A stretch of DNA of 64,000 bases, from assembly GCA_017470345.1 (NCBI GenBank), contig JAFUEP010000024.1, positions 1 through 64,000 of the forward strand, read 5' to 3'. Position numbers and translations under genes: made by a program. Under the pieces are notes generated by a model that worked only from the letters and a program-made list of their open reading frames with translations, searched no databases and was not told the origin of the DNA. This DNA comes from Prevotella sp. (GTDB taxonomy: Bacteria > Bacteroidota > Bacteroidia > Bacteroidales > Bacteroidaceae). Of this stretch, positions 789-54,326 are shown in pieces (the first letter of the stretch is position 1; each line of letters starts with the position of its first letter).

Positions 789-3700
789 CTATTGAAGAAT
801 CATGTTCACGATGGCTTTTGCATCCTCGATGGTGATGCCTTCTACGCCATCCACGTTCGCAGCATCGGCTTTAAAGTTGACAACAGGCTGACCGAGGATA
901 TAGCCTATCACTGCCGTGACATCGGCAATCGAGACCACGCCGTCGCCATTGGCATCGCCGGGTATAAAGGTAGGCTTTGCGGTGAAGTAGCCGGGATTGT
1001 CGGCACCGCCGTCGATGTGGGCATAGGCAAAATTCACATGATTTGCATCATAGACCGTGCCTTGGCCGCCCACGATGCTGATGCAACCGCTGAACATCAT
1101 TTCTGATGATGTGACTGCCGCCGTAGTCCATTTGTCACTCACATAGATGGCCTTGAGCGAACTTAGCGCAAACATGCCGAACGTATTTGTCACTTTCTCG
1201 GTTGAGAAGCTGCTCAAGTCGAGTTCTTCGGCTTGACAGAACGAGAACATAGTACTCATGTCAGTCACATTCCTAGTGTCAAAGTTACTGAAATCCACCT
1301 TTGATACGACGGGGCAGTCATTGAACATGGACTTCATGGTTGTCACCTTGCTCGTGTTCAGGTAAATCAAGCCATCAAAAGTGACGAGGTTAAACATCGA
1401 ACTGAACCATTCGGCAGTACTCTTGGGACGCGCATCAGCAAATGAAGGATCGAACACTACTCGTGTGACCGACGTATTGAAGCCGTCAGCACACCATCCT
1501 GGCTGATTATCACCCTCGTTCAGGTCGTAGGTCGAGCCCGGTCGGCTGCTGCGCTGGTTGTCGAAGTAGAACGTCAGCGTCGTGTTCCCCGGCGTGTAGC
1601 AGGCGTATGCCTCTCTAATCGAGAAATACCCCGGGTTGCTAGGGCCGCCGTCGATGCGGGCGTAGGCTTTGTCGATGTGGTTGGCGTCATAGGTCGTGCC
1701 TTGGCCGCCCACGAGTTTGGCGCAATCCTTGAACATGTTGTTGGAACTAGTCACGTTGTCTGTGTTCCAAAGATCACTCACGCTAATGGTCTGCAGGTCA
1801 GTGCAGCCACGGAACATGGCTAACATGGTTGTTACGTTGTATGTACTGAAGCTGCGCAGGTCGAGCGATTTCAGTGCCGGGCAGCCATCGAACATGGAAT
1901 TCATGTTTGTCACCCGACTCGTTTCGAAGCTGCTCAGGTCAATGTCGCTCAACGATTTACATCCTTCAAACATGGAACTCATGCGCGTGACGTTGGCGGT
2001 GTTGAAGTTAGAGAGGTCAAGGCTCGTCAGCGACTCGCATGCGCAGAACATGTCATTCATACTGACGACATTCTGCGTGTCGAAGTTGCTGAGGTCGAGT
2101 TCTGTCAGGTTGCTGCAATAATTGAACATGTTATACATAACGGTCACATTGTGCGTGTCGAAGCCACTCACGTCGAGTGTCGTCAGCTCATAGCAGTCGT
2201 TAAACAAGCTACGCATGTCGGTCACATTGCGTGTATCGAAGTGGCTCACGTCAAGGGAGGTGAGCGACTCACATTCTTCGAACATGGCTTCCATGCTGAT
2301 CACCTCGCTGGTGTTCAGAAATTCCATGCCATCGATGTTGGTGAGCAGATGCATTTGGCCGAACCAGTAATAAGTGCTGACGGGGCGGGCGTTGGCAAAA
2401 GAGGGATCGAACACCGCACGGGTAATATCCGAGTAGTTGCCATCGTTGAACCATCCGGGCTCCTCGTTTGTAGCCATGTCGGTGGAGTAGGTCTTATACG
2501 TGCGGCGTGTGGCGCGCTGGCCGTCGTGGTAGAACGTCAGCGTCTTGCCGTCGGCTGAGAGGAGGGCGTATGGCACCTTGAGGTAGTTGGGTCCCACGAA
2601 GTAGCCCTCGTAGTCCTCCCTGTCGATGTGTGCTGCATCCTCGCCGACGTGCTCACCGTAGGCGGAATTATAGGTTGTGCCCAATTCGCCGACGATGCTA
2701 TAGCAGTGGAAGAACATGTCTTCGGTCGACGCGCGGCTTGCATCCCAGCCGTCGCCCACGCTGACAGTGGTCAGCGATGTGCAGTTGAGGAACATCTCGT
2801 CCATGTGGAGAGTCTGGGAGGTGTAGAAGCTGGAGAGGTCGATGGAGATGAGGGACGTGCATCCAGAGAACATCTCGTTCATGACGCTCACTTTCTCCGT
2901 GTTGAACGATGTGAGGTCGAGGTTCTTCAGCGACGTGCATTCATAGAACATCATCCACATCTCCGTCACCTTGGCTGTGTTGAAGTGGCTCAGGTCGAGG
3001 CTGGTCAGGCTCTCGCAGCCATAGAACATCTGGCTCATATCGTCGACCTCGCTGGTGTTCAGGTACTCCAGGTTCGTGATGGTGGTGAGCTGTGCCATAT
3101 TGGTGAACCAGCCGAAGGTGCTAGTGGGACGTGCCGAGGCAAACGATGGGTCGAACACCACCGACGTAACACCGCGGGTATCGGGCTCCCAGTCGGGCGT
3201 GGCGCTATTCTCGTTCACCCCGTAAGTGCGCTCGGTGTGCAACAGGCGTCGGCCGTCGGCATAGAAGGTGAATGTCTTACCATCGTCAGAGAGGACGACG
3301 TAGGGGTTGCCCCTGTCGGTCAGATAGCCTGGACGGCTGTAGCCGCCGTCGATGCGAGCGTACTCTTTGTCTACATGGCTGTAGCTGTAGGTGGTGCCAC
3401 TGCCACCGACGATGCTTGTGCAAAGCGAGAACATCAGGTCGCTGGAAGTCACGGCGTCTGTTGTCCATGAACTGGAGACGAGGATGATGTTGAGTGCGCG
3501 GCAACTGGAGAACATGGAGCTCATGTTGGTGACGTTGGCGGTGTTGAAGCTGCTCAGGTCGAGGGCGGTGAGGACGTTGCATCCGTCGAACATGAGATAC
3601 ATGGTGGTGACGCGGGCCGTGTTGAAGTTAGAGAGGTTAAGGGTCTTCAAGCTCTGACAAAACTCGAACATGGCGTTCATAGTGGTGACGTTGGTCGTGT

Positions 3701-6700
3701 TGAAAGATGAGAGGTCGAGTTCGGTGAGGCTGCGGCAGTTGCGGAACATGGACTTCATGTTGGTGACCTGCGACGTGTTCAGGTTGTTGAGCCCAGTGAT
3801 AGTGGTAAGGTTCTTCATGCCGTCGAACCAGCTACACGTGGAGGTCGGTTGCATGTTGCTGAAAGAGCTATGGAACACCACTTCGCGTACGTTTTCGCAG
3901 TTGTTGTCGCTGTACCATTGCGGTGACGTGCCACCCAGGTTAAGGTTGTAGGCCGTTCCTGGACGTAGGTCCTTCATGTAGTCGTAGTAGAAGGTCAGCG
4001 TCTGGCCGTCCGTCGAAAGTAGTGCGTATGCTGTTTTTACAAGGCCTTCCACGGATGTGAAATAGCCGGGATTGGAGGTGCCACCATCGACATGTGCGTA
4101 GGAAGCATCATTGTGGCCGGCATCGTAGGCGGTGCCCTGGCTACCCACGAGGCTTTTGCACCCGCCGAACATGTTTTCTGATGAAGTAACCGAGCTGATG
4201 CTCCACGAACTGCCCACAAAGATGGTTTTCAAGTTTTGACTATTTGAGAACATACGCGCCATATCCGTGACCCGCTTCGTGTCGAAGCCGCTGATGTCGA
4301 GGCTTGTCAAAGCATCGCACCAAGAGAACATGGCCGACATATCGGTTACCTTTGATGTGTCGAAGTTGCTCACGTCAATGCTCGTCAAAGAAGAGCATGA
4401 ACTAAACATGCCGGCCATGTTGGTTACTTTGGCGGTGTTGAAGTGACTCACGTCAAGGCTTTTTAGTTTACTACACGAACGGAACATTGTTCGCATTGTG
4501 GTGACATTGGCTGTGTTGAAGCTACTTATGTCAAGGCTTTCCAATTTGATGCAGTTAGCGAACATGTCATTCATGAGGGTCACCTTACTGGTGTTGAAGT
4601 TGCTCAGGTCAAGGCTTGTCAAACCTTCACAGTTGTTGAACATAGACGAAAAGTCGGTGACATTTGACGTGTCGAAGCTGCTGAGGTCAAGGCTTGTCAA
4701 AGCGAAGCAATTTTGGAACATGGCCTTCATGTCTGTAACTTTGGACGTGTTGAAGTGGCTCAGGTCAACGCTTCCTAATTTGCTGCATTTATTGAACATG
4801 AAATTCATGTTGGTCACTTCACTGGTGTTCAGATATTCCATGCCTGTGATGGACAGAAGGTTACTCATGGTAGAGAACCAGTTGTTCATTCTTGTCGGTC
4901 GTGCATCGGCAAATGACGGGTCGAAGACCACCTGTGTGACATTGCCAACGATGCCGTTACTGCTATAGTACCATGATGGTGGATAGTCGTCAGAGTTCAA
5001 GTCGTAGGTCTTGCCTGAGCGGGTGCTGCGTATCGCATCGTAGTAGAATGTCAGTGTGGTGTTCTCCGCCGTGTAGTAGGCATAGGCTTCAAGCTCGCGG
5101 CCAGTGAAATAGCCAGGATCATTGGAACCTCCGTCGATGTGGGCGTAAGCGGCATCGACATGGCTGGCATCGTAGCTGGTGCCCTGTCCGCCCACGAGGC
5201 TGGTACAGTTATTGAACATGTTCCTGCTGCTGGTCACCGTAGCCGTGGACCATTTGTTGCTCACATAGATGGTCTTCAACTTGGGGCAGTTGGCGAACAT
5301 AAGGTCTGCTCCGACAGGCTTTTCCAAGCTGAAGCCGGTGAGGTCGACTGTTTCCAAGTTGCTGCAGTTGAAGAACATGCCCGACATGCCGTATGTACCC
5401 GTGACGTTGGTCGTGTTGAAATTGCCCAAGTTAAGACTTTTCAAGCTGCTGCAGTATTCAAACATCCCATGCATATCAGTCACTTTGGCCGTGTTGAAAT
5501 GGCTCAGGTCGAGACTTGTCAAGCTAGTGCATTTATAGAATAAATTAGTCATCTCCTGCACTTCGCTGGTGTTGAAGTAGCTGATACCGACGATGTCTTC
5601 CAATTTGCTCATGACGTTGAACCAAAAGTAAGCCGTGGTAGGTCGGGCGTTGGCAAACGAGGGGTCGAAGACCACTGTGGTGACGTTGGCGTATGTGCCG
5701 TCGCTGTACCACATAGGCTCTACGCACCCGGCGTTCAGGTCGTAGGTCTTGCCCGTGCGGGTATTACGCAGTGCATCGCAATAGAAGGTCAGCGTTGTGT
5801 TCGCCGTCGTGTAATTGGCGTAGGCTTCGAGGGGACGGGCTGTAAAATAGCCAGGATCGGCAGAGCCACCGTCGATGCGGGCGTATGCATAACCGTCGTT
5901 GTCGGCGTTGAATGTCGTGCCTTTTCCTCCCACGAGTTTAAAGCATTTCTCAAACATGGCAGAACCAGTTATTACGCTATTCGTACTCCAAAGGTCCGAG
6001 GCATAGATGGTGGTCAGATTGCCGCAGTTGTTAAACATCCTCCACATGGATTTCACTTTGGCCGTGTTGAAACTGCAAAGGTCAAGGCTTGTCAAGCCCA
6101 TGCATCCTTCGAACATGAAATCCGTCATCGTCACGTTCGCGGTGTTGAACTTGGTCACGTCGAGGCTCTTCAAGGCGCTGCAGTCCTGAAACATTCCTCT
6201 CATATTTGTCACTTTAGCCGTGTTGAAGTTGCTCACGTCAAGGCTTCTTAAGCCCGTGCAGCCTTTGAACATGCAGTCAGTGGACTCCAACTTCGATGTG
6301 TCGAAATGGCTTACGTCAATGCTTGTCAGGCTTTTGCAATCTTGGAACATATAGCCCATATTGCTCGCATTGCTGGTGTTCAAATTGGCTATGCCCTCGA
6401 CGAGCTGTAGTCTCTCCATGCCGCAGAACCAGAAGGACATTGTCGTTCGGCGCGCATTGGCAAACGACGAGTGGAAGGACACCTTGGTAACATTGGCGTT
6501 AGTGCCGTCATTGTACCAATCTGGTCGCTGGTTGTTATTCAAAACGTAAACCGTGCCCGTACGGGTACTACGCAGGTTGTCGTAGTAGAACGATAGCGTC
6601 ATGTTGTCCGGGGTATACTCGGCGTAGGCCTCCTGGGCCGAGGCGGTCATATTCGTTGTCAGTAAAAACAGCAACAGAAGGAGTAAATGTTTGAAAAATT

Positions 6701-6713
6701 GGTTAGTTTTCAT
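789..6713 (-). CDS. BspA-family leucine-rich surface protein with dockerin-like C-terminus
   Basis: The 1,974-residue product starts with a signal peptide (residues 1-26, ending in ASAQ). It then has seven modules of roughly 180-340 residues. Each opens with an AYAxYT..NTTLTFYYD strand block and a DPSFANARPTS block, followed by a variable run of DUF285/BspA-type repeats built on SLTSLDLSxFNTxxVTxMxxMFxxC, and closes with a DGGxxxPGYFT element. The last 60 residues resemble a type I dockerin pair (DANGDGVVSIAD and a weaker NVDGVEGITIED loop). BspA proteins are known surface adhesins that bind host matrix proteins and other bacteria; that role is inferred here. The start is the ATG before the signal peptide. 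The strong internal repetition makes copy-number change by recombination likely. Confidence 0.9.
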   Translation of the reverse strand: MKTNQFFKHLLLLLLFLLTTNMTASAQEAYAEYTPDNMTLSFYYDNLRSTRTGTVYVLNNNQRPDWYNDGTNANVTKVSFHSSFANARRTTMSFWFCGMERLQLVEGIANLNTSNASNMGYMFQDCKSLTSIDVSHFDTSKLESTDCMFKGCTGLRSLDVSNFNTAKVTNMRGMFQDCSALKSLDVTKFNTANVTMTDFMFEGCMGLTSLDLCSFNTAKVKSMWRMFNNCGNLTTIYASDLWSTNSVITGSAMFEKCFKLVGGKGTTFNADNDGYAYARIDGGSADPGYFTARPLEAYANYTTANTTLTFYCDALRNTRTGKTYDLNAGCVEPMWYSDGTYANVTTVVFDPSFANARPTTAYFWFNVMSKLEDIVGISYFNTSEVQEMTNLFYKCTSLTSLDLSHFNTAKVTDMHGMFEYCSSLKSLNLGNFNTTNVTGTYGMSGMFFNCSNLETVDLTGFSLEKPVGADLMFANCPKLKTIYVSNKWSTATVTSSRNMFNNCTSLVGGQGTSYDASHVDAAYAHIDGGSNDPGYFTGRELEAYAYYTAENTTLTFYYDAIRSTRSGKTYDLNSDDYPPSWYYSSNGIVGNVTQVVFDPSFADARPTRMNNWFSTMSNLLSITGMEYLNTSEVTNMNFMFNKCSKLGSVDLSHFNTSKVTDMKAMFQNCFALTSLDLSSFDTSNVTDFSSMFNNCEGLTSLDLSNFNTSKVTLMNDMFANCIKLESLDISSFNTANVTTMRTMFRSCSKLKSLDVSHFNTAKVTNMAGMFSSCSSLTSIDVSNFDTSKVTDMSAMFSWCDALTSLDISGFDTKRVTDMARMFSNSQNLKTIFVGSSWSISSVTSSENMFGGCKSLVGSQGTAYDAGHNDASYAHVDGGTSNPGYFTSVEGLVKTAYALLSTDGQTLTFYYDYMKDLRPGTAYNLNLGGTSPQWYSDNNCENVREVVFHSSFSNMQPTSTCSWFDGMKNLTTITGLNNLNTSQVTNMKSMFRNCRSLTELDLSSFNTTNVTTMNAMFEFCQSLKTLNLSNFNTARVTTMYLMFDGCNVLTALDLSSFNTANVTNMSSMFSSCRALNIILVSSSWTTDAVTSSDLMFSLCTSIVGGSGTTYSYSHVDKEYARIDGGYSRPGYLTDRGNPYVVLSDDGKTFTFYADGRRLLHTERTYGVNENSATPDWEPDTRGVTSVVFDPSFASARPTSTFGWFTNMAQLTTITNLEYLNTSEVDDMSQMFYGCESLTSLDLSHFNTAKVTEMWMMFYECTSLKNLDLTSFNTEKVSVMNEMFSGCTSLISIDLSSFYTSQTLHMDEMFLNCTSLTTVSVGDGWDASRASTEDMFFHCYSIVGELGTTYNSAYGEHVGEDAAHIDREDYEGYFVGPNYLKVPYALLSADGKTLTFYHDGQRATRRTYKTYSTDMATNEEPGWFNDGNYSDITRAVFDPSFANARPVSTYYWFGQMHLLTNIDGMEFLNTSEVISMEAMFEECESLTSLDVSHFDTRNVTDMRSLFNDCYELTTLDVSGFDTHNVTVMYNMFNYCSNLTELDLSNFDTQNVVSMNDMFCACESLTSLDLSNFNTANVTRMSSMFEGCKSLSDIDLSSFETSRVTNMNSMFDGCPALKSLDLRSFSTYNVTTMLAMFRGCTDLQTISVSDLWNTDNVTSSNNMFKDCAKLVGGQGTTYDANHIDKAYARIDGGPSNPGYFSIREAYACYTPGNTTLTFYFDNQRSSRPGSTYDLNEGDNQPGWCADGFNTSVTRVVFDPSFADARPKSTAEWFSSMFNLVTFDGLIYLNTSKVTTMKSMFNDCPVVSKVDFSNFDTRNVTDMSTMFSFCQAEELDLSSFSTEKVTNTFGMFALSSLKAIYVSDKWTTAAVTSSEMMFSGCISIVGGQGTVYDANHVNFAYAHIDGGADNPGYFTAKPTFIPGDANGDGVVSIADVTAVIGYILGQPVVNFKADAANVDGVEGITIEDAKAIVNMILQ

Positions 6714-19712: not shown

Positions 19713-19788
19713 AAAAACGGCAAAGTGGGGCTTTTCGATAGTAATATAGGGGTATATTACCTTCGAAAAGCCCCACTTTGCCGTTTTT
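19713..19788. terminator. Long hairpin between convergent genes, core family copy 1
   Basis: Arms of 26 nt (AAAAACGGC...CTTTTCGA and its complement) flank the 20-bp near-palindromic core GTAATATAGGGGTATATTAC at 19741-19760. It ends in TTTTT on both strands and lies between the M16 and helicase stops, so a two-way terminator is likely. The same core recurs inverted at 46411-46430. Confidence 0.8.
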
Positions 19789-21760
19789 AACCCCTCAGAC
19801 TTTCGACATACTGCCAGAGCTTGCGATAGAAGGGATGGCGACAGAGCGTGCGACGGTCGCCGAGGATGATGACCTTCATGCGGGCCCGCGTGATGGCGAC
19901 GTTCATGCGGCGCAGGTCGCGCAGGAAGCCGATCTGCCCCTCGTCGTTGGAGCGGACGAGGGAGATGACGATGACGTCGCGCTCCTGTCCCTGGAAGCCG
20001 TCGACGGTGTTGACGGTGATCAGCCGGCGGAAGGGCTTGAAGAACTCCGTCCGCTTCAGGAGCTGGCGCAGCAGCTGCACCTGGGCGCGGTAGGGCGAGA
20101 TGACGCCCACGTCGATGCGCTCCTGCAGGATGCGCTCCTTGCCGATGAGCTCGAAGTAGGCCTGCAGAGCCAGGAGGGTCAGGCGGGCCTCGAAGTCATT
20201 GAAGTGAGAAAGGCCCACCCCCTGCCCCTCCCCAAGGGAGGGGGGACTATATACTTCAGAGGCTTTCTTCGCAGCTTGTTGTGACTGTTCTCCCCTCCTT
20301 TGGGGAGGGGCAGGGGGTGGGCTTATCCACGTCATCGGCAGGTCGAGGTCCAGGATGCTGCGATGCCTGACCTCGGGTGCCGCCACCATCTGGTTGTGAT
20401 AGAACCAGTCGGAGGAGAAGCGCATGATGTCCTCGTGCATGCGATACTGCATGCGCAGCAGCGTGACCACCTCGGGCTTCAGCATGGCGATGCGCTCCAT
20501 GAGCGTGCGCCCCAGTCCGCCCTTGAGGGCCTCATAGCACTTCACCGTGGGCGGCAGCTGACAGTGGTCGCCGGCCAGGATGACGCGCTGGGCCCTGCGG
20601 ATGGGGATCCAGCAGGCGGCCTCCATGGCCTGGGCGGCCTCGTCGATGAAGAGGGTGCCGAAGCGCATGCCGTCGAGCAGGCGGTTGGCCGAGCCGACGA
20701 GCGTCGAGGCGATGACGCGGGCCTCGCCGAAGAGCTCGGCGCGGATGCGGATCTCGAGCTCCGTGGCGCGGTCCTTCAGGCGGTCCATGCGCTGGTGCCA
20801 CTGCTCGCCGCGCTTCTTGGCCGCGCGCAGCTCGCGGATGGCCTTGCGCAGGGCCCACAGCTGGGGATAGTCGGGGTGGGCCTCGAAGCGCCGCTCGTAG
20901 GTGAAGGCCAGCATCTTGTCGTCCACGCGGACGGGATTGCCGATACGGAGCACGTTGAGACCGCGGTCGACGAGCTTTTCCGAGATCCAGTCGACGGCCA
21001 TGTTGCTCTGCGCACAGACGAGCACCTGCGGCTCGCGCCGCAGCGTCTCGTAGATAGCCTCGACGAGGGTGGTCGTCTTGCCCGTGCCGGGAGGGCCGTG
21101 GACGATGGCCACGTCCTTGGCCCGCAGCACCTCGTTGACGGCCCGCTCCTGCGTCGCGTTCAGGTATTGGAAGCCCATGTCGGGGAAGGTGAACGTCTCG
21201 GCCCGCTGACGCGTGTAGAAGAGGTCGCGCAGATAGCCCAGCCGACCCTTGGCGCGCATGGTGCGCTCCAGGGCCTCGAACATCAGGCGGAAGGAGGTCT
21301 CGTCGAACGACAGCATCACGCCCAGCTGGCCCTCGCCCGACTGCAGGTCGACGAGCGGCGCGCCGTCGGGCACAGCGACGACCATGCGCTCGGCCTCGGC
21401 GAAGCTGACGGTGCCGGTGAAGGAGAAGTATTTTAAGTGAGAAGTGAGAGGTGAGAGGTGAGAAGTATTTGACTTCTCACTTCTAAAGAACTGCACGGGA
21501 CGGCCGAACTCGAAGTTGTGATCGGCATCATCGTCGGGGCCCAGCTGGCGGACAATCTCGACACAGAGCTGATTCAGCGAGTTGTAGTAGGTGCGCGTCA
21601 CGCTGACGGGCAGCCACGCGTCGCCCCGCCCGACACGACGCTCCACGCCGACGGCCTCAGCCATCTGCTGATAGGCCGCGCGCTCCTCCTCATACTCCAT
21701 CTGGAGCAGGGCCCGCTGCCGTTGCAGCTCAAGAATCGGTGAGAGCGTCTCCTGGTCCAT
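19787..21760 (-). CDS. UPF1/IGHMBP2-like superfamily I helicase with two repeat insertions
   Basis: The 657-residue protein shows superfamily I motifs: GPPGTGKTTT near residue 223, FIDEAAQAM (Walker B), LAGDHCQLPPT, ISPYRAQVQ, TVDGFQGQERDV and NVAITRAR near the C-terminus. It probably unwinds DNA or RNA 5' to 3'; the exact role in Bacteroidota is unknown to me. Two family-foreign segments are seen. Residues about 92-109 (RSEKSNTSHLSPLTSHLK) come from 7-bp repeats, and residues about 479-518 come from a GC-rich palindrome. Both lie between motifs, where loops are likely. A TACCTTTG box at 21787-21794 drives it. Confidence 0.9.
   Translation of the reverse strand: MDQETLSPILELQRQRALLQMEYEEERAAYQQMAEAVGVERRVGRGDAWLPVSVTRTYYNSLNQLCVEIVRQLGPDDDADHNFEFGRPVQFFRSEKSNTSHLSPLTSHLKYFSFTGTVSFAEAERMVVAVPDGAPLVDLQSGEGQLGVMLSFDETSFRLMFEALERTMRAKGRLGYLRDLFYTRQRAETFTFPDMGFQYLNATQERAVNEVLRAKDVAIVHGPPGTGKTTTLVEAIYETLRREPQVLVCAQSNMAVDWISEKLVDRGLNVLRIGNPVRVDDKMLAFTYERRFEAHPDYPQLWALRKAIRELRAAKKRGEQWHQRMDRLKDRATELEIRIRAELFGEARVIASTLVGSANRLLDGMRFGTLFIDEAAQAMEAACWIPIRRAQRVILAGDHCQLPPTVKCYEALKGGLGRTLMERIAMLKPEVVTLLRMQYRMHEDIMRFSSDWFYHNQMVAAPEVRHRSILDLDLPMTWISPPPAPPQRRGEQSQQAAKKASEVYSPPSLGEGQGVGLSHFNDFEARLTLLALQAYFELIGKERILQERIDVGVISPYRAQVQLLRQLLKRTEFFKPFRRLITVNTVDGFQGQERDVIVISLVRSNDEGQIGFLRDLRRMNVAITRARMKVIILGDRRTLCRHPFYRKLWQYVESLRG
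20213..20322. repeat. GC-rich nested palindrome inside the helicase gene
   Basis: Perfect 23-bp arms at 20213-20235 and 20300-20322 (outer end GCCCACCCCCTGCCCCTCCC) flank a 64-nt middle. The middle starts and ends with matching G-rich and C-rich halves around a normal-composition core of about 42 nt. Confidence 0.85.
21435..21485. repeat. 7-bp-period repeat inside the helicase gene
   Basis: Four heptamers, AAGTGAG twice then AGGTGAG twice, run into AAG; after TATTTGA comes the complementary CTTCTCACTTCT. The helicase frame passes through. Confidence 0.8.
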
Positions 21761-30439: not shown

Positions 30440-33400
30440 TTATCTGAACTCCAACGTGCCGCCACGGACGATGTCGGCGTGGCTGACGGTGGGCTGCGGA
30501 TGCGGCTGGCCGTTGAGCAGCACACGGTCGCCGTCGCCCTGCCGCTCGATGGTGAACGTGCGGCCTGAGGGCTGGTTGAGCGTCACCCTACGGAACGCGG
30601 GGGCACCGAGCACATAGTCCGTTGTGCCGGGGCAGACGGGATAGAAGCCCATCATGGCGAAGAGCTGCCATGCCGACATCTGGCCCGCGTCGTCGTTGCC
30701 GGAGAGTCCGCCCGGCGTGTCGTTATACTCCGTCTGTAGGATATGGCTGACCCACTGGCGCGTCTTCTGAGGCTGTCCGGCCAGGGCGAAGAGCCACGCC
30801 ACCTGATGGCAGGGCTCGTTGCCGTGCCAGTAGCGGCCGCAGGTGAACATCGAGTCGAGGCGGGCCGTGAAGGCGTCCTCGCCGCCCAGACACGAGATGA
30901 GTCCGGCGACGTTCTGCGGCACGTACCACGTGTAGTGGCATGTGGCGCCCTCGGTGATGTAAGGCTTGCGGTGCACCAGGTCGGTGTTGCCCTCCCACGA
31001 GCCGTCAGCATGTCGGCCGTCGGCCCAGCCCGTCAGCGGGTTGATGACGTGGCGCCAGTTCTCCGAGCGCCGCATCAGCTCCCGATAGTCGTCGTCGTGG
31101 CCCAACGCACGGGCCAACTGGGCCACGCAGAAGTCGTCGTAGGCATACTCCAGCGTGCGCGACGTCTGCTCATGTGTATGGAAGGCCTCCATGACGCTGT
31201 CCTCCAGCGGTATGTAGCCATACTTCAGGTAAGAGGCAAGGGCGCGGCGACCCATGCCGTTCTTGTATTCCTCGAACGTCGCCGGCGACTCCATCGCATT
31301 CTTCCTCAGACCTTCGTAGGCCTTCGCGTAGTCGACGCCGCGGATGCCCTTGACGCAGGCGTCGGCCAGCACCGAGGCACAGTGGTCGCCGATCATGGCG
31401 GCCGTGTAGCTGTTCCAGCAGGGGAAGATGGGCATCCATCCGCCCTCCTCATACATGCGGACGAGCGACTGCATCATCTGGCCGGACACGTCGGGCACGA
31501 TGATGTTATAAAGAGGATGGAGCGCCCGATAGGTGTCCCACATGGAGAAGTCACCATAGTGAGTGGAGAGTGGAGAGTTGAGAGTGGAGAGTAGGCTGGC
31601 GCCGAACTTCGGATACCGCCCGTCCTTGTCGCTCATCTCGCGCGGCAGGAAGGAGGCGCGATAGAGGGCGCCGTAGAACTGAAGGACGCGGGCCGTGTCG
31701 GGGTCGTCGACGTCGATGGTGTGGAGTCGGGCCGTCCAGCGGTCGATGTTGGCCTGCATCATCTCATCGAAGGTCATCCACCGCTCCAGGTTGCCGAGGG
31801 CACCGTCGCGCGAGGTGAACGAGGTGGCCATGCGCAGCTCCAGGGGCCGTCCGCGGCGACCGTCGACAGTGAGGCAAATTCCCTCGTCGAAAGTGCAAAA
31901 ATCTGCGATTTCATCGGAGCAGGTCATGACAAAGTGGCCGCTGAATCCGGCCCGCTCGCCCCAGCCCTGATAGATGCGGTGGACGGGGTTGTGGGCATAG
32001 ACGATGCGCTGCGCGCGGTCGAGCTCCACCCCACCCTCGCGCTCGTCGCTGTTCGTGTTCAGGACGATGTGGACGGGGCCGTCACGTAGGGGCGTGACGC
32101 GCATGATGGCCGAATGGCTCAGGGCCGTCAGCTCGACGAGGAGCTGCTCGTCGGGCAGGAAGACCCTGTAGTAATAAGGATGCGACGTCTCCTGCGAGTG
32201 GCTGAAGCGCGTGGCGCGCTCCTCGGGCGCCAGTCGGCGCTGCCCCGTGAGGGCCGCCACGGTGAACGAGCCGTAGTCCTGGGTGCAGCCGCCGACGAGC
32301 CAGTGGCTGGCGCGGATGCCCTGCAGGAGCGAGTCCGTATAATAATAAGGTGCGACGCACTTCTTCTCCGTGTCGCGCGTCTGGGGCGTCCAGAACGTCT
32401 GGCCGTTGGGCGTCAGCACGGCGGGCAGCGTCTGGCCGTGCTCCTCCGAGCCCTTGCCGAAGAGTCCGGCGGTGCGCGTGTTGGCGGGCGCCGTGCCCAC
32501 CATCGTGTTGAGGGCGGCGAGCTGGCGCAGGTGCTCCAGCGAGTGGATGCGCCGGGCGATGCGCTCCTTCATCGCGGTCCACGGCTCGAAGTCACTGACC
32601 ATCAGCTCGTTGTGCAGCACACCGACGCGCACGTCGCCCTCGGCATTGCGGGCGAAGACGAGCTGCAGGTTGGCCGCCATGGGCAGCAGGTCCTCCATCC
32701 GTTCGTGCCCCGTGGTCAGACCCATGAGCGTCATGAGGCGGAAGAGGGCCGTGTCGTGGCCGAAGCGCAGCGAGGCGCCGTGGGCGCGGCGGGCGATGAC
32801 GTCGTCGGCCTCGTCAGCGATGTGCTGCCAGAGGGCGATGCTGGCGCGGGCGGCGATGCCGTCGTTGAGCGGCGAGGGCCCGTTGCAGAGGTTCATGCGC
32901 TGGTCGTTAGCGTCGTGGACGGCCTCCATCTCTTCGCGCGTCATGTATTGGAAGAGGTCGATGCTGAGGGGCACGTCCTGCATGTCGCTGGCGATGGTGT
33001 GGAGCTCGGAGAGCAGCTTCAGGGGCTGGCCGACGTGCGCGGGATCCCTGAACAGCAGGGCCACGAAGCGGTCGGGGGCGATGTCCGCCTGGCGCACGAC
33101 GCGCCGCTTGAGCGCCTGCAGCTCGGCCGGCTCATGGTTGATCCACGCCATGTCGGCCTCGTTGGTCTGCGCATCGACCTCGAGGCCGGGGAAGCGGTGC
33201 TCCAGCTCATCGCAGAAGGCCAGCATCGAGGCGCGGCAGCGGGGCGAGGTGCTCGAGCGGGCCGACAGCCGCGCGTCGGTCCCGCGGAACAGCTGGGGGA
33301 AGCGGTCGGCCATGCGGCCGGCGATGGCGCGATGCTGGCGGGCGCCGAGGGGCGTCAGCTGTCCGGCGCGTCCGCGCGCATCACGCACGATGGAACGGAG

Positions 33401-33691
33401 CTTTTTTCGCAGCTGGAGGCCCTCGCGGGTCAGGTTCTTCTTGTCAGCGAACTGCGCCCAGACCCAGTCGTAGCGCTCCTGGTCGGGCAGCCAGCGCGAG
33501 CCGTGGCGGCCGTAGTGGGAGACATAGAACACCTCGTAGCCGACGGGCACGGCCACGGCCGTCGGCTCGACGTCGGGATAGGCATAGTAGACGCCGCCCG
33601 AGCGCTCAGGCGACCAGTCCGTCTGGGCCGCTACGGGCAGCAGCGCCAGCGCCGCCACGACGGACAGGAGAAACCGCAGATGTCTTCGCAT
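30440..33691 (-). CDS. Histidine acid phosphatase fused to GH92 alpha-mannosidase
   Basis: The 1,083-residue secreted protein (signal peptide 1-22) joins two enzymes. Residues about 30-370 form a branch-2 histidine phosphatase with YGRHGSRW (RHG 62-64) and RFGHDTALF near 310. From about 390 to the end it is a full-length GH92 exo-alpha-mannosidase, with NTMVGTA, GNEPCHQVAWLF and GNDDAGQMSAW, the last two supplying the acidic catalytic and calcium residues. A phosphatase coupled to a mannosidase suggests attack on phosphorylated mannans or phospho-N-glycans. Residues about 699-711 (SLLSTLNSPLSTHY) are encoded by 7-bp repeats. It lies 17 nt after a barrel protein gene, in an operon. Confidence 0.9.
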   Translation of the reverse strand: MRRHLRFLLSVVAALALLPVAAQTDWSPERSGGVYYAYPDVEPTAVAVPVGYEVFYVSHYGRHGSRWLPDQERYDWVWAQFADKKNLTREGLQLRKKLRSIVRDARGRAGQLTPLGARQHRAIAGRMADRFPQLFRGTDARLSARSSTSPRCRASMLAFCDELEHRFPGLEVDAQTNEADMAWINHEPAELQALKRRVVRQADIAPDRFVALLFRDPAHVGQPLKLLSELHTIASDMQDVPLSIDLFQYMTREEMEAVHDANDQRMNLCNGPSPLNDGIAARASIALWQHIADEADDVIARRAHGASLRFGHDTALFRLMTLMGLTTGHERMEDLLPMAANLQLVFARNAEGDVRVGVLHNELMVSDFEPWTAMKERIARRIHSLEHLRQLAALNTMVGTAPANTRTAGLFGKGSEEHGQTLPAVLTPNGQTFWTPQTRDTEKKCVAPYYYTDSLLQGIRASHWLVGGCTQDYGSFTVAALTGQRRLAPEERATRFSHSQETSHPYYYRVFLPDEQLLVELTALSHSAIMRVTPLRDGPVHIVLNTNSDEREGGVELDRAQRIVYAHNPVHRIYQGWGERAGFSGHFVMTCSDEIADFCTFDEGICLTVDGRRGRPLELRMATSFTSRDGALGNLERWMTFDEMMQANIDRWTARLHTIDVDDPDTARVLQFYGALYRASFLPREMSDKDGRYPKFGASLLSTLNSPLSTHYGDFSMWDTYRALHPLYNIIVPDVSGQMMQSLVRMYEEGGWMPIFPCWNSYTAAMIGDHCASVLADACVKGIRGVDYAKAYEGLRKNAMESPATFEEYKNGMGRRALASYLKYGYIPLEDSVMEAFHTHEQTSRTLEYAYDDFCVAQLARALGHDDDYRELMRRSENWRHVINPLTGWADGRHADGSWEGNTDLVHRKPYITEGATCHYTWYVPQNVAGLISCLGGEDAFTARLDSMFTCGRYWHGNEPCHQVAWLFALAGQPQKTRQWVSHILQTEYNDTPGGLSGNDDAGQMSAWQLFAMMGFYPVCPGTTDYVLGAPAFRRVTLNQPSGRTFTIERQGDGDRVLLNGQPHPQPTVSHADIVRGGTLEFR
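31561..31595. repeat. 7-bp-period repeat inside the GH92 region
   Basis: Five heptamers GAGTGGA, GAGTGGA, GAGTTGA, GAGTGGA and GAGTAGG stand in tandem, exactly 35 nt. The frame stays open. It lies between YPKFGA and GDFSMWDT, sequences usually close together in GH92. Confidence 0.85.
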
Positions 33692-43475: not shown

Positions 43476-43533
43476 GTTGAAAGAAAAAAATAAATGAATA
43501 ATAAGATAGACGATAGCGAACAGTTATGATTAC

Positions 43534-43592
43534 CTATTCCCTATTATCTATTATCTATTATCTATTAACTATTATCTGTTATCGATTATCTG
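43534..43592. repeat. 7-bp tandem repeat upstream of the TonB receptor
   Basis: Eight heptamers of the CTATTAT type stand in tandem, three exact in a row at 43541-43561. The array spans the gap and the last codons of the upstream gene, so changes in copy number could alter that gene's C-terminus and the spacing ahead of the receptor. Confidence 0.85.
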
Positions 43593-51040: not shown

Positions 51041-51095
51041 CCCAGACATAGGATCCTACAGTTATTTGTGCTGGTGTTATGCCACTGACAAAGTT

Positions 51096-51248
51096 AGAGA
51101 CCCCACCCCCGACCCCTCCCCTTGAAGGGAGGGGAGCAGCTGCGCCGTCATTACCGTCGGGCAGTGCGCCAGCCACCCCCCTCCTTTGGAGGGGTCGGGG
51201 GAGGCCTCTCCCCTCCCTTCAAGGGGAGGGGTTGGGGGTGGGGTCTCT
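51096..51248. repeat. GC-rich nested palindrome, most complete copy
   Basis: The 41-nt arms 51096-51136 and 51208-51248 are complementary with one mismatch; each arm is itself a palindrome (CCCCTCCCCTTGAAGGGAGGGG type). A third half-element, CCCCCCTCCTTTGGAGGGG, lies between them next to a core of normal composition. A 67-codon frame through it is only a product of the repeat. Confidence 0.9.
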
Positions 51249-51256
51249 ATCTTTTG

Positions 51257-51938: not shown

Positions 51939-54326
51939 ATGCAAAAGAACCTTGTCATAGTAGAGTCGCCGGCAAAAGCCAAGACCATTGAGAAGTTTTT
52001 GGGCGATGACTACAAAGTGATGTCAAGCTATGGTCACATCCGTGACCTGAAGAAGCGCGAACTCAGCATCGACGACAACACGATGGAACCCGAATATGAG
52101 ATTCCCGACGAGAAGAAGAAACTGGTCAGCGAGCTCAAGTCGCAAGCCAAGAAAGCCTCACAGGTATGGCTCGCAAGCGATGAGGACCGCGAGGGAGAAG
52201 CCATCTCATGGCACCTGTGCGAGGTGCTGGGGCTCGACGAGCAGAAGACGAAGCGCATCGTGTTCCATGAAATCACCAAACCCGCCATCCTCGCCGCCAT
52301 CGAGCATCCACGCACGCTGGACATGAACCTGGTCAACGCGCAGCAGGCACGCCGCGTGCTCGACCGCCTCGTCGGCTTCAAGCTGTCGCCCGTGCTCTGG
52401 CGCAAGGTGAAGCCCGCCCTGTCGGCCGGACGCGTGCAGAGCGTCGCCGTGCGCCTCATCGTCGAGCGCGAGCGCGAGCTGCAGGCCTTCAAGAGCGAGA
52501 CCTACTACAGCGTCAGCGCCACCTTCGGCGTCGTGAATGCCGACGGGTCGCAGTCGGAGGTGAAGGCCACGCTCGGCCAGCGCTTCAAGACGCAGCAGGA
52601 GGCCGAGCAGTTCCTCGAGCTCTGCAAGGACGCCACGTTCACCATCGAGCAGATCCAGAAGAAGCCGCAGAAGCGCGTGCCCGCACCGCCCTTCACCACC
52701 TCGACGCTGCAGCAGGAGGCCGCCCGCAAGCTCGGCTTCACCGTCAGCCAGACGATGATGGTCGCCCAGCACCTCTACGAGAGCGGACGCATCACCTACA
52801 TGCGTACGGACTCGGTCAACCTCTCCAGCCTGGCCATCAACTCGGCCAAGGACAAGATCACCGAACTCTATGGCGGCGATTATTCTAAGGTGCGCCAGTA
52901 TCACACCTCGTCGAAAGGCGCCCAGGAGGCCCACGAGGCCATCCGCCCCACCTATATGGACCAGACCACGATAGAGGGCACGGTGCAGGAGCGCCGCCTC
53001 TACGACCTCATCTGGAAGCGCACGGCCGCCTCGCAGATGGCCGACGCCGAGATTGAGAAGACGACGGTGGAAATTGCTTGCAGAAGTGAGAAGTTAGAAG
53101 TGAAAAGTGAGAAGTCTCATTACGCTCAAGACGAATCATCTGCGGAAAAAGGTAATAACACTTCTAACCTCTCACCTCTCACTTCTCACTTTGTCGCCAC
53201 CGGCGAGGTCGTCAAGTTCGACGGATTCCTGAAAGTCTATCGCGAGTCGCAGGACGACGACGACGAGAACACCGACGAGTTTGCCCACGTGCTGCCGCCG
53301 CTCCACGAGGGACAGGAGCTCATCCGCCGCGAGATCAGCGCCCTGGAGCGCTCGAGCGTCGGACCGCAGCGCTATTCCGAGGCCTCGCTCGTGCATAAGC
53401 TCGAGGAGCTCGGCATCGGCCGCCCGTCGACCTATGCCCCCACCATCTCGACCATCCAGCAGCGCGAATACGTCGTCAAGGGCGACAAGAAAGGCGAAGA
53501 GCACAAGTACAACGTGCTCCTGCTCAAGGGCAAGCAGATCACCCAGAAGACCCGCACCGAGACCACCGGCTCGGACAAGGGCAAGCTCATCCCCACCGAC
53601 GTGGGCACCGTCGTCAACGACTTCCTCATGAAGCACTTCCCCACCATCATGGACTATAACTTCACGGCCCGCGTCGAGCAGGACTTCGACCTGATTGCCG
53701 AGGGCAAGGAGCAGTGGAACACCATGATCAAGGACTTCTATCACGAGTTCGAGCCCTCCGTCGAGAAGACCCTCAACCAGCGCTCCGAGCACAAGGCCGG
53801 CGAGCGCCAGCTGGGCATCGACCCCAAGTCGGGCAAGCCCGTCTTCGTCAAGATCGGACGCTTCGGACCCGTCGTCCAAATCGGTTCGGCTGACGACAAG
53901 GACAAGCCGCAGTTCGCCCACATGCCCAAAGAGCTCAGCATCGAGACCATCACCATGGAGCAGGCCCTCGAGCTCTTCCGGCTGCCGCGCATGCTCGGCG
54001 AATACGAGGGACAGCCCGTCAACATCGGCACAGGCCGGTTCGGCCCCTACGTGCTCCACAAGGGCGTCTACACCTCGCTGCCCAAGGGTGCCGACCCGCT
54101 GACCATCACCATCGCCGAAGCCGTGAAGCTCATCGACGAGAAGCGCAAGGCCGACGCCCAACGCCATCTGAAGACCTTCGACGAGGACCCCAAGCTCGAG
54201 GTGCTCAACGGCCGCTTCGGACCCTACCTCTGCTACGACGGCAAGAACTACCGCATGCCCAAGTCGATGCACGAACGCGCCAAGGACCTCAGCTACGAGG
54301 AGGCCATGAAACTGATCAAGAATTAG
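51939..54326 (+). CDS. topA: DNA topoisomerase I with in-frame repeat insertion
   Basis: The 795-residue type IA enzyme relaxes negative supercoils. It has the Toprim start KNLVIVESPAKAKTIEKFLG, the DEDREGEAISWHL metal site, and the catalytic Tyr near 287 in GRITYMRTDS. C-terminal repeat modules (GRFGPVVQIG, GRFGPYVLHKG, GRFGPYLCYDG) replace zinc fingers, as usual in this phylum. Residues 382-418 (RSEKLEVKSEKS ... NTSNLSPLTSH) are foreign to the family and come from an inverted pair of 7-bp-repeat arms; relatives go almost directly from the preceding strand to FVATGEVVKFDG. The insertion lies away from the active site. aroK starts 3 nt downstream. Confidence 0.95.
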   Translation: MQKNLVIVESPAKAKTIEKFLGDDYKVMSSYGHIRDLKKRELSIDDNTMEPEYEIPDEKKKLVSELKSQAKKASQVWLASDEDREGEAISWHLCEVLGLDEQKTKRIVFHEITKPAILAAIEHPRTLDMNLVNAQQARRVLDRLVGFKLSPVLWRKVKPALSAGRVQSVAVRLIVERERELQAFKSETYYSVSATFGVVNADGSQSEVKATLGQRFKTQQEAEQFLELCKDATFTIEQIQKKPQKRVPAPPFTTSTLQQEAARKLGFTVSQTMMVAQHLYESGRITYMRTDSVNLSSLAINSAKDKITELYGGDYSKVRQYHTSSKGAQEAHEAIRPTYMDQTTIEGTVQERRLYDLIWKRTAASQMADAEIEKTTVEIACRSEKLEVKSEKSHYAQDESSAEKGNNTSNLSPLTSHFVATGEVVKFDGFLKVYRESQDDDDENTDEFAHVLPPLHEGQELIRREISALERSSVGPQRYSEASLVHKLEELGIGRPSTYAPTISTIQQREYVVKGDKKGEEHKYNVLLLKGKQITQKTRTETTGSDKGKLIPTDVGTVVNDFLMKHFPTIMDYNFTARVEQDFDLIAEGKEQWNTMIKDFYHEFEPSVEKTLNQRSEHKAGERQLGIDPKSGKPVFVKIGRFGPVVQIGSADDKDKPQFAHMPKELSIETITMEQALELFRLPRMLGEYEGQPVNIGTGRFGPYVLHKGVYTSLPKGADPLTITIAEAVKLIDEKRKADAQRHLKTFDEDPKLEVLNGRFGPYLCYDGKNYRMPKSMHERAKDLSYEEAMKLIKN
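53083..53191. repeat. 7-bp-repeat element inside topA
   Basis: Five GAAGTGA-type heptamers (53083-53117) and four inverted ones (CTTCTAA, CCTCTCA twice, CTTCTCA, 53161-53191) flank a 43-nt core of normal composition. Confidence 0.88.

What the first reader, a model, noticed from the sequence alone, without database searches (positions are those of the whole stretch)
53083..53191. Two unrelated proteins carry the same repeat-derived peptide: TopA and the helicase
TopA holds RSEK...NTSNLSPLTSH and the UPF1-like helicase RSEKSNTSHLSPLTSHL, both encoded by 7-bp-period DNA. The element sits in the same reading frame relative to both genes and leaves them open. This looks like a mobile or copied element tolerated in frame within essential genes, comparable to the Rickettsia palindromic elements. 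I know of no such described family in Prevotella. Its spread mechanism and any function of the inserted peptide are unknown.
Basis: partly seen in the sequence, partly recalled or inferred. Interest (0 to 1): 0.85.

Follow-up and report, generated by a model that had tools for sequence, protein, structure and literature searches.

The report
In-frame palindromic DNA inserts in Prevotella
Short hairpin-shaped pieces of repeated DNA have settled in frame inside ordinary working genes of Prevotella, adding extra peptide loops to proteins such as topoisomerase I, much like the palindromic elements long known in Rickettsia.

Summary
TopA carries a 36-codon in-frame insert (53082-53189): two 7-bp-period arms, inverted complements, around a loop. 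The UPF1-like helicase carries a shorter hairpin with the same arm units, in the same frame. I read both as members of a dispersed set of palindromic elements: [7-bp arm]-core-loop-core'-[complementary arm]. Two cores recur: TATGATTA..TAATCATA (10 exact copies in this genome) and TTTGCTRCCGC..GCGGYAGCAAA (21). In this and related genomes copies lie in spacers and, almost always in one frame, inside genes such as DnaG, PriA, MiaB and Mfd. A relative about 95% identical has an empty site for a 108-bp copy in an epimerase gene and a different element in the same TopA loop; 50 of 81 Prevotella TopAs have a short loop there. Inside genes 14 of 14 non-zero length differences between relatives are multiples of 3 (two more set aside as spacers); outside, 9 of 27. 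The likeness to Rickettsia palindromic elements is supported in behaviour, not by sequence. What moves them is unknown; IS200-type transposase genes do not track them closely. Arms of 7-bp repeats and reuse of one protein slot by different elements look new.

The parts
51939..54326 (+). topA, DNA topoisomerase I, host gene of the element
   Evidence: Pfam Topoisom_bac, Toprim, Toprim_C_rpt; NCBIfam topA_bact over its cut-off
53082..53115 (+). left arm of the TopA element, AGAAGTG heptads (4.9 copies); the in-frame TGA position reads TTA
53116..53158 (+). inner core and loop, read by eye as a decayed relative of the TATGATTAC..GTAATCATA core; encodes HYAQDESSAEKGNN, compare YDYSQDENADSKGNH in another genome
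53159..53191 (+). right arm, complementary heptads CACTTCT (4.7 copies)
19787..21760 (-). UPF1-like helicase ORF, host gene
   Evidence: Pfam AAA_11 and AAA_12
21428..21484 (-). core-less heptad hairpin in frame, RSEKSNTSHLSPLTSHLKY; same insert in RUG12472
20213..20320 (-). second in-frame palindrome in the helicase, GC-rich family GCCCACCCCCTGCCCCTCCCC..GGGGAGGGGCAGGGGGTGGGC, encodes PPPAPPQRRGE..YSPPSLGEGQGVG
30440..33691 (-). GH92-family ORF, host of a single heptad arm
   Evidence: Pfam Glyco_hydro_92
31556..31594 (-). single heptad arm, mostly GAGTGGA units, in frame (LLSTLNSPLSTHY); RUG12472 has GAGTTGA units, same length
43525..43591 (.). decayed copy in a spacer: half core TATGATTACC plus 7-bp repeats; RUG12472 has a whole core-B hairpin here

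Best explanation
The insert is a copy of a non-autonomous palindromic mobile element that works like the Rickettsia palindromic elements. Shown here: dispersed copies with shared inner cores; arms of 7-bp repeats complementary to each other; copies in spacers and in frame inside genes; filled and empty sites; different elements at the same site in near relatives; one loop inverted between relatives; arm length changes, some by multiples of 7, in spacers. Inferred: copies are moved by an enzyme supplied in trans, perhaps acting on the hairpin as single-stranded DNA; insertion is widespread but selection keeps only copies in spacers or in tolerant surface loops where the frame stays open; once a loop holds one element it is a neutral landing place, so later elements land in it or replace it; arms grow and shrink by slippage where no reading frame forbids it.
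For: Core B: 29 of 100 genus genomes have a match, 10 copies in this genome with control 0; the control scores 1 in 4 of the 100 genomes. Core A: 21 copies in this genome, control 0. Of 70 distinct core-B copies in held loci, 24 lie inside mechanically called ORFs; 19 of these element-ORF pairs were examined, and 18 of 19 read YDY..NH in one frame, the other lying at the start of its ORF. Core A: 15 of the 21 copies examined, 11 inside ORFs, 10 after discarding an ORF that starts in the element; all 10 read FA[AT]A. Hosts in several genomes are ordinary enzymes: DnaG, PriA, MiaB, an RsmB/F-type methyltransferase, FeoB, TamB, Mfd, QueA, RNase R-like; in this genome an RNase R-like, an NAD-dependent epimerase, MenC-like, ArgC-like, an ABC transporter. 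Empty sites: epimerase copy in RUG12472, 108 bp; ArgC-like copy in RUG12472 and in L079's genome, 105 bp each; GH106 copy in L079's genome, 87 bp at 80% flank identity. Different elements at one site: TopA; core B here and core A in RUG12472 at two spacers. Loop inversion at C16:80967 and apparent nesting of core B in core A at L235. Solved TopA chains have nothing at the insert: the two alignments shown stop at residue 377 or 372 and resume at 415 or 418.
Against: No mobilising gene was found; PF01797 matches occur in 16 of 25 heptad-rich and 4 of 10 heptad-free genomes that are at least 90% complete (hand tally), at most a weak tendency. No target-site duplication is visible at the epimerase empty site. 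Arm units differ between copies with one core, which plain copying does not predict. In 20 other pairs of relatives scanned, 8 heptad-bearing differences in 5 pairs were listed and none shows a whole core; many arrays have no partner arm and could be slippage products. Assignment of the TopA insert to core B is by eye; it does not match the core pattern. The window's genome and RUG12472 are draft assemblies, though the complete genome of P. communis E15-14 has 9 core-A copies.
Confidence: 0.8

Rival explanations
1. Plain heptanucleotide simple-sequence repeats made by DNA polymerase slippage, with inverted partners made by template switching; nothing moves.
For: Period 7 is far above every other period tested, 69 arrays in 1.57 Mb against 21 or fewer for any other period from 4 to 30. 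Some spacer arrays differ by multiples of 7: 6 of 27 unique non-zero spacer differences, about 4 expected by chance, plus both set-aside cases. Heptamers are known as the commonest long SSR class (PMC4679880 introduction read; PMC4692102 passages).
Against: Shared cores unrelated to the repeat unit at many unlinked places; a 108-bp empty site; whole inserts including loop differing at one site. Slippage by 7 would break frames, yet genic arrays differ in unit while keeping length or frame.
Confidence: 0.1
2. REP-type elements mobilised by IS200-like tyrosine transposases (RAYT).
For: REPs are palindromic, dispersed, also occur inside genes, many of them replication and repair genes, and different REPs sit at about the same recB site in two Xanthomonas species (PMC3733652, abstract and passages).
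Against: Nine of 25 heptad-rich genomes at least 90% complete have no PF01797 match and 4 of 10 heptad-free ones do (hand tally). The two cores do not show the GTAG or CGTC tag by inspection.
Confidence: 0.07
3. The hairpins serve the cell, for example as binding sites, terminators or functional peptide loops, and are kept by selection.
For: TGA/TCA occurs in the unit of 70 of 100 arrays against 28.9 in shuffled units and is among the least variable triplets within arrays. Hairpins put the TGA-rich arm first in 24 of 27 listed cases, some overlapping, with 3 ties.
Against: Sites are empty or filled by unrelated elements in close relatives; G024, same genus, has no period-7 array in 400 kb.
Confidence: 0.03

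Closest known systems
Rickettsia palindromic elements (RPE)
   Same: Dispersed palindromic elements, RPEs about 150 bp, in spacers and in frame inside unrelated genes, each encoding a conserved peptide (RPE facts from passages of review PMC10969869; the original papers were not seen).
   Different: Arms are runs of 7-bp units that differ between copies with one core; one protein site holds different families in different relatives; the host is not an intracellular parasite (recalled). No sequence comparison with RPEs was made.
Repetitive extragenic palindromes (REP) with RAYT transposases
   Same: Small palindromes, mostly between genes, some within repair genes, different ones at about the same recB site in two species (PMC3733652 abstract and passages).
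   Different: No GTAG/CGTC tag seen by eye; no close association with IS200-like transposase genes.
Heptanucleotide repeats of the Nostoc trnL intron P6b stem
   Same: A hairpin built on complementary 7-nt repeats, with one repeat class replaced by another repeatedly; class II unit NNTGAGT contains TGA (PMC4476775 abstract and passages).
   Different: One RNA locus and not a dispersed element; no insertion into proteins in the passages seen.
TAACTGA heptamer repeats of Beggiatoaceae, Cyanobacteria and some Bacteroidetes
   Same: 7-bp units carrying TGA; forward repeats give stops in all three frames, reverse repeats occur in some ORFs (PMC4679880, abstract and three sections read).
   Different: One fixed unit, in Beggiatoaceae mostly just upstream of start codons, direct repeats with one inverted case; no palindromic core in the sections read.
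PINSR, a Prevotella intermedia/nigrescens repeat
   Same: A lineage-specific dispersed repeat in Prevotella (PMC4755523 title and passages).
   Different: Described as lacking terminal inverted repeats and coding sequence; not palindromic in the passages seen.

Membership tests
Rickettsia palindromic elements | palindromic, hairpin-forming element of roughly 100-150 bp | tested here: met
   TopA insert 108 bp, fold z -4.04; epimerase site differs by 108 bp
Rickettsia palindromic elements | many copies, between genes and in frame inside unrelated genes, with a conserved peptide | tested here: met
Rickettsia palindromic elements | sequence homology to a described RPE family | not tested
   no RPE sequence was fetched or compared; the likeness is of behaviour only
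REP/RAYT elements | co-occurrence with an IS200-like (Y1) transposase | tested here: not met
   9 of 25 heptad-rich genomes at least 90% complete lack PF01797, 4 of 10 heptad-free ones have it; hand tally
REP/RAYT elements | GTAG or CGTC tag at the stem foot | tested here: inconclusive
   not seen by eye in cores A and B; no formal search, and stem feet are ragged
MITE of a DDE transposon | target-site duplication on insertion | tested here: inconclusive
   none visible at the one clean close empty site; other empty sites are more diverged
MITE of a DDE transposon | shared ends with an autonomous transposon | not tested
   no parent element was searched for
Heptanucleotide simple-sequence repeats | tandem 7-bp units | tested here: met
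Heptanucleotide simple-sequence repeats | explained by tandem slippage alone | tested here: not met
   shared cores, empty sites and different inserts at one site; single-arm arrays may still be slippage products

The most novel reading that the evidence does not exclude
A dedicated trans-acting recombinase or transposase recognises arms marked by TGA or TAA every 7 bp and exchanges whole palindromic cassettes with unrelated cores at fixed slots in proteins and spacers, so that surface loops of housekeeping proteins act as docking sites with rapid turnover.
Probability: 0.1. Interest if true: 0.9.

Novelty: new variant of a known kind. Interest (0 to 1): 0.68.

Why it matters
A recent review treats RPEs as an unusually frequent case of in-frame palindromic insertion (PMC10969869 passages). 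Finding such inserts in conserved genes of Prevotella, with filled, empty and exchanged sites between near relatives, gives an abundant rumen and gut genus in which birth, replacement and loss of protein loops can be followed, and makes the unknown mobilising step open to comparative genomics. It also warns that such loops are inserts and not conserved parts of the protein. I found no description in Prevotella in the held open-access library (searches; listings only, plus passages of the papers named here); subscription papers and preprints were not covered.

Tried and rejected
Slippage of a fixed unit was the first idea and was dropped as the whole story after shared cores and an empty site appeared. 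A stop-codon role was considered because units carry TGA, but TAA/TTA was below shuffled expectation (17 against 33.3 arrays) and arrays with a stop on neither strand were only somewhat fewer than expected (12 against 24.1). The impression that TCA stays constant while the rest varies came from searching for TCA five times; in those searches the reversed control also scored high in many genomes (this one 42 and 38 against 26 and 46), because units such as TCACTTC contain ACT. An unbiased triplet survey did not single out TCA, though per-position variability still ranks TGA and related triplets low. A reverse-transcriptase or telomerase-like origin of the 7-bp units was an idea only and was not tested. 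IS200/RAYT transposase was tested and not supported. Rfam gave no match in 11 loci. Virus scans gave 103 stretches for core B and 1 for core A; by my own estimate, which assumes a mean contig length, that is about chance, so no viral carrier is claimed. Core A was seen in 0 of 197 other genomes in a phylum sample and 2 of 100 others in a family sample. The TopA structure model was poor (mean pLDDT 62.2, pTM 0.34); it puts the insert between two strands with pLDDT under 50 and is given little weight. Arm-to-arm matching within a copy exceeded between-copy matching in 5 of 6 sets (permutations reaching it: 0, 1, 6, 11 and 270 of 2000); G031 went the other way, 0.69 against 0.78, which I put down to coding constraint and mixed strands without testing it.

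Full report
What is there. The window lies in a 2.67 Mb draft genome of a Prevotella (nearest named locus RUG12472). TopA (51939-54326, +) carries 36 extra residues at 53082-53189 and the UPF1-like helicase (19787-21760, -) carries about 19 at 21428-21484; both are encoded by 7-bp repeats read in the same frame. The TopA insert is an inverted repeat that folds at -34.9 kcal/mol, z -4.04, and only the frame in use is open among six. The two best solved TopA chains aligned have no residues there.

Not chance. Period-7 arrays number 69 in 1.57 Mb of 80 named Prevotella topA neighbourhoods plus the window; other periods from 4 to 30 give 0 to 21. This genome has 35 in 426 kb, from contigs chosen because they had hits; G024 of the same genus, chosen because it is one contig, has none in 400 kb. 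Five TCA at 7-base spacing occur in 120 of 150 genomes of the genus and 121 of 198 of the phylum, with very uneven counts. The reversed control of that pattern is also high in many genomes, so these counts show 7-bp arrays and not a TCA rule.

The elements. A survey listed 27 hairpins, some overlapping, with the TGA-rich arm first in 24 and 3 ties, and showed conserved inner cores next to the loop. Core B, TATGATTA..TAATCATA, has matches in 29 of 100 genus genomes, 107 in all by my sum of the table. Core A, TTTGCTRCCGC..GCGGYAGCAAA, has 21 copies here and copies in 6 of 12 genomes reached through named loci. In genic core-B copies the loop often encodes YDY[ST]Q[GD]EN..NH; 18 of 19 examined element-ORF pairs share that frame. 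Five further copies inside mechanical ORFs were left out: three at the start of ORFs that begin in or near the element, and two without heptad arms, one of which also reads YDY..NH. In this genome 10 core-A copies inside believable ORFs all read FA[AT]A. The TopA peptide HYAQDESSAEKGNN resembles YDYSQDENADSKGNH of G031, so I read the TopA insert as a decayed core-B copy; this is by eye.

Relatives. TopA loops: of 81 proteins 50 have 9 residues or fewer, 31 have 12 or more, 7 have 25 or more. The long ones include different elements: heptads of the GAAGTGA, GAGTTGA and CCATTGA kinds, and a GC-rich palindrome in L066. In the left arms of L079 and L082 the TGA triplets that would fall in frame read TCA or TCT while the others are intact; in the window one reads TTA and in L061 GGA (by eye). 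A P-type ATPase loop carries 7-bp repeats of four kinds in 4 of 10 homologs, by eye, and in L110 and L114 a block of equal length there has different units.

Filled, empty and exchanged sites. Site by site against RUG12472 (G371, about 95% identical) and L079's genome (G372, about 89%): the epimerase copy is absent from G371 (108 bp); the ArgC-like copy is absent from both (105 bp each); the GH106 copy is absent from G372 (87 bp, flanks 80% identical; no G371 counterpart was found). An ABC transporter site holds core A here, a single heptad arm in G371 and a GC-rich palindrome in G372, with length differences of 51 and 12. Other genic sites keep a short remnant or a different arm in G371. Some sites are the same in both, for example the helicase insert and L144:7671. 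Core B here is core A in G371 at two spacers. At C16:80967 the loop is the reverse complement in G371 with one mismatch. The script listed 21 comparisons inside ORFs, one site twice; of 16 unique non-zero differences 14, at 11 sites, are multiples of 3. The two exceptions (-7, 14) lie in ORFs antisense to neighbouring genes, over what I read as spacers, leaving 14 of 14. Outside ORFs 9 of 27 unique non-zero differences are multiples of 3.

How it works, as far as shown. Insertion, exchange, loop inversion and arm-length change are seen as outcomes. The enzyme, the intermediate and the direction of copying are not. Selection on the reading frame is shown by the length data and by the single frame of each core. 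Reuse of slots is best explained by landing in already neutral inserted sequence, of which one apparent nested case is seen (L235); this is inference. Independent insertion at the same tolerant loop is not excluded.

Known or new. In behaviour it is an RPE-like element. It is not shown to be an RPE by sequence. REP/RAYT membership is not supported. The 7-bp arms link it to scattered reports of heptanucleotide repeats, notably the Nostoc trnL intron hairpin whose repeat class is replaced repeatedly (PMC4476775 passages). I score it a new variant of a known kind, interest 0.68.

Noticed in passing
window 20213-20320: Second in-frame palindromic insert in the helicase, GC-rich family (GCCCACCCCCTGCCCCTCCCC..GGGGAGGGGCAGGGGGTGGGC); the same kind fills an ABC transporter slot in L079's genome (L306).
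   Followed up: partly
window 51090-51255: GC-rich palindromes in the spacer before topA; the stretch between them appears inverted in RUG12472 relative to the window.
   Followed up: no
L158:14150-15500, L160:2826-2990, L295:4641-5066: Half core-A elements amplified as tandem repeats of about 45 bp, two copies here against five in RUG12472 at one site.
   Followed up: partly
L234:2001-2036, L299, L312: One spacer holds core B here, a GAAGTGA hairpin with another core in RUG12472, and repeats of the GGATTACGCTGATTAAACGG kind in L079's genome.
   Followed up: partly
genomes G462 and G396, same family, other genus: Core-A-like copies with a long shared loop (GTTCGCCAACAGTTGACGTGCAAG type), perhaps a distinct subfamily.
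   Followed up: no
window 4591-4773, 6053-6273: Tandem repeats of period 78 inside the long ORF 789-6713 (-).
   Followed up: no
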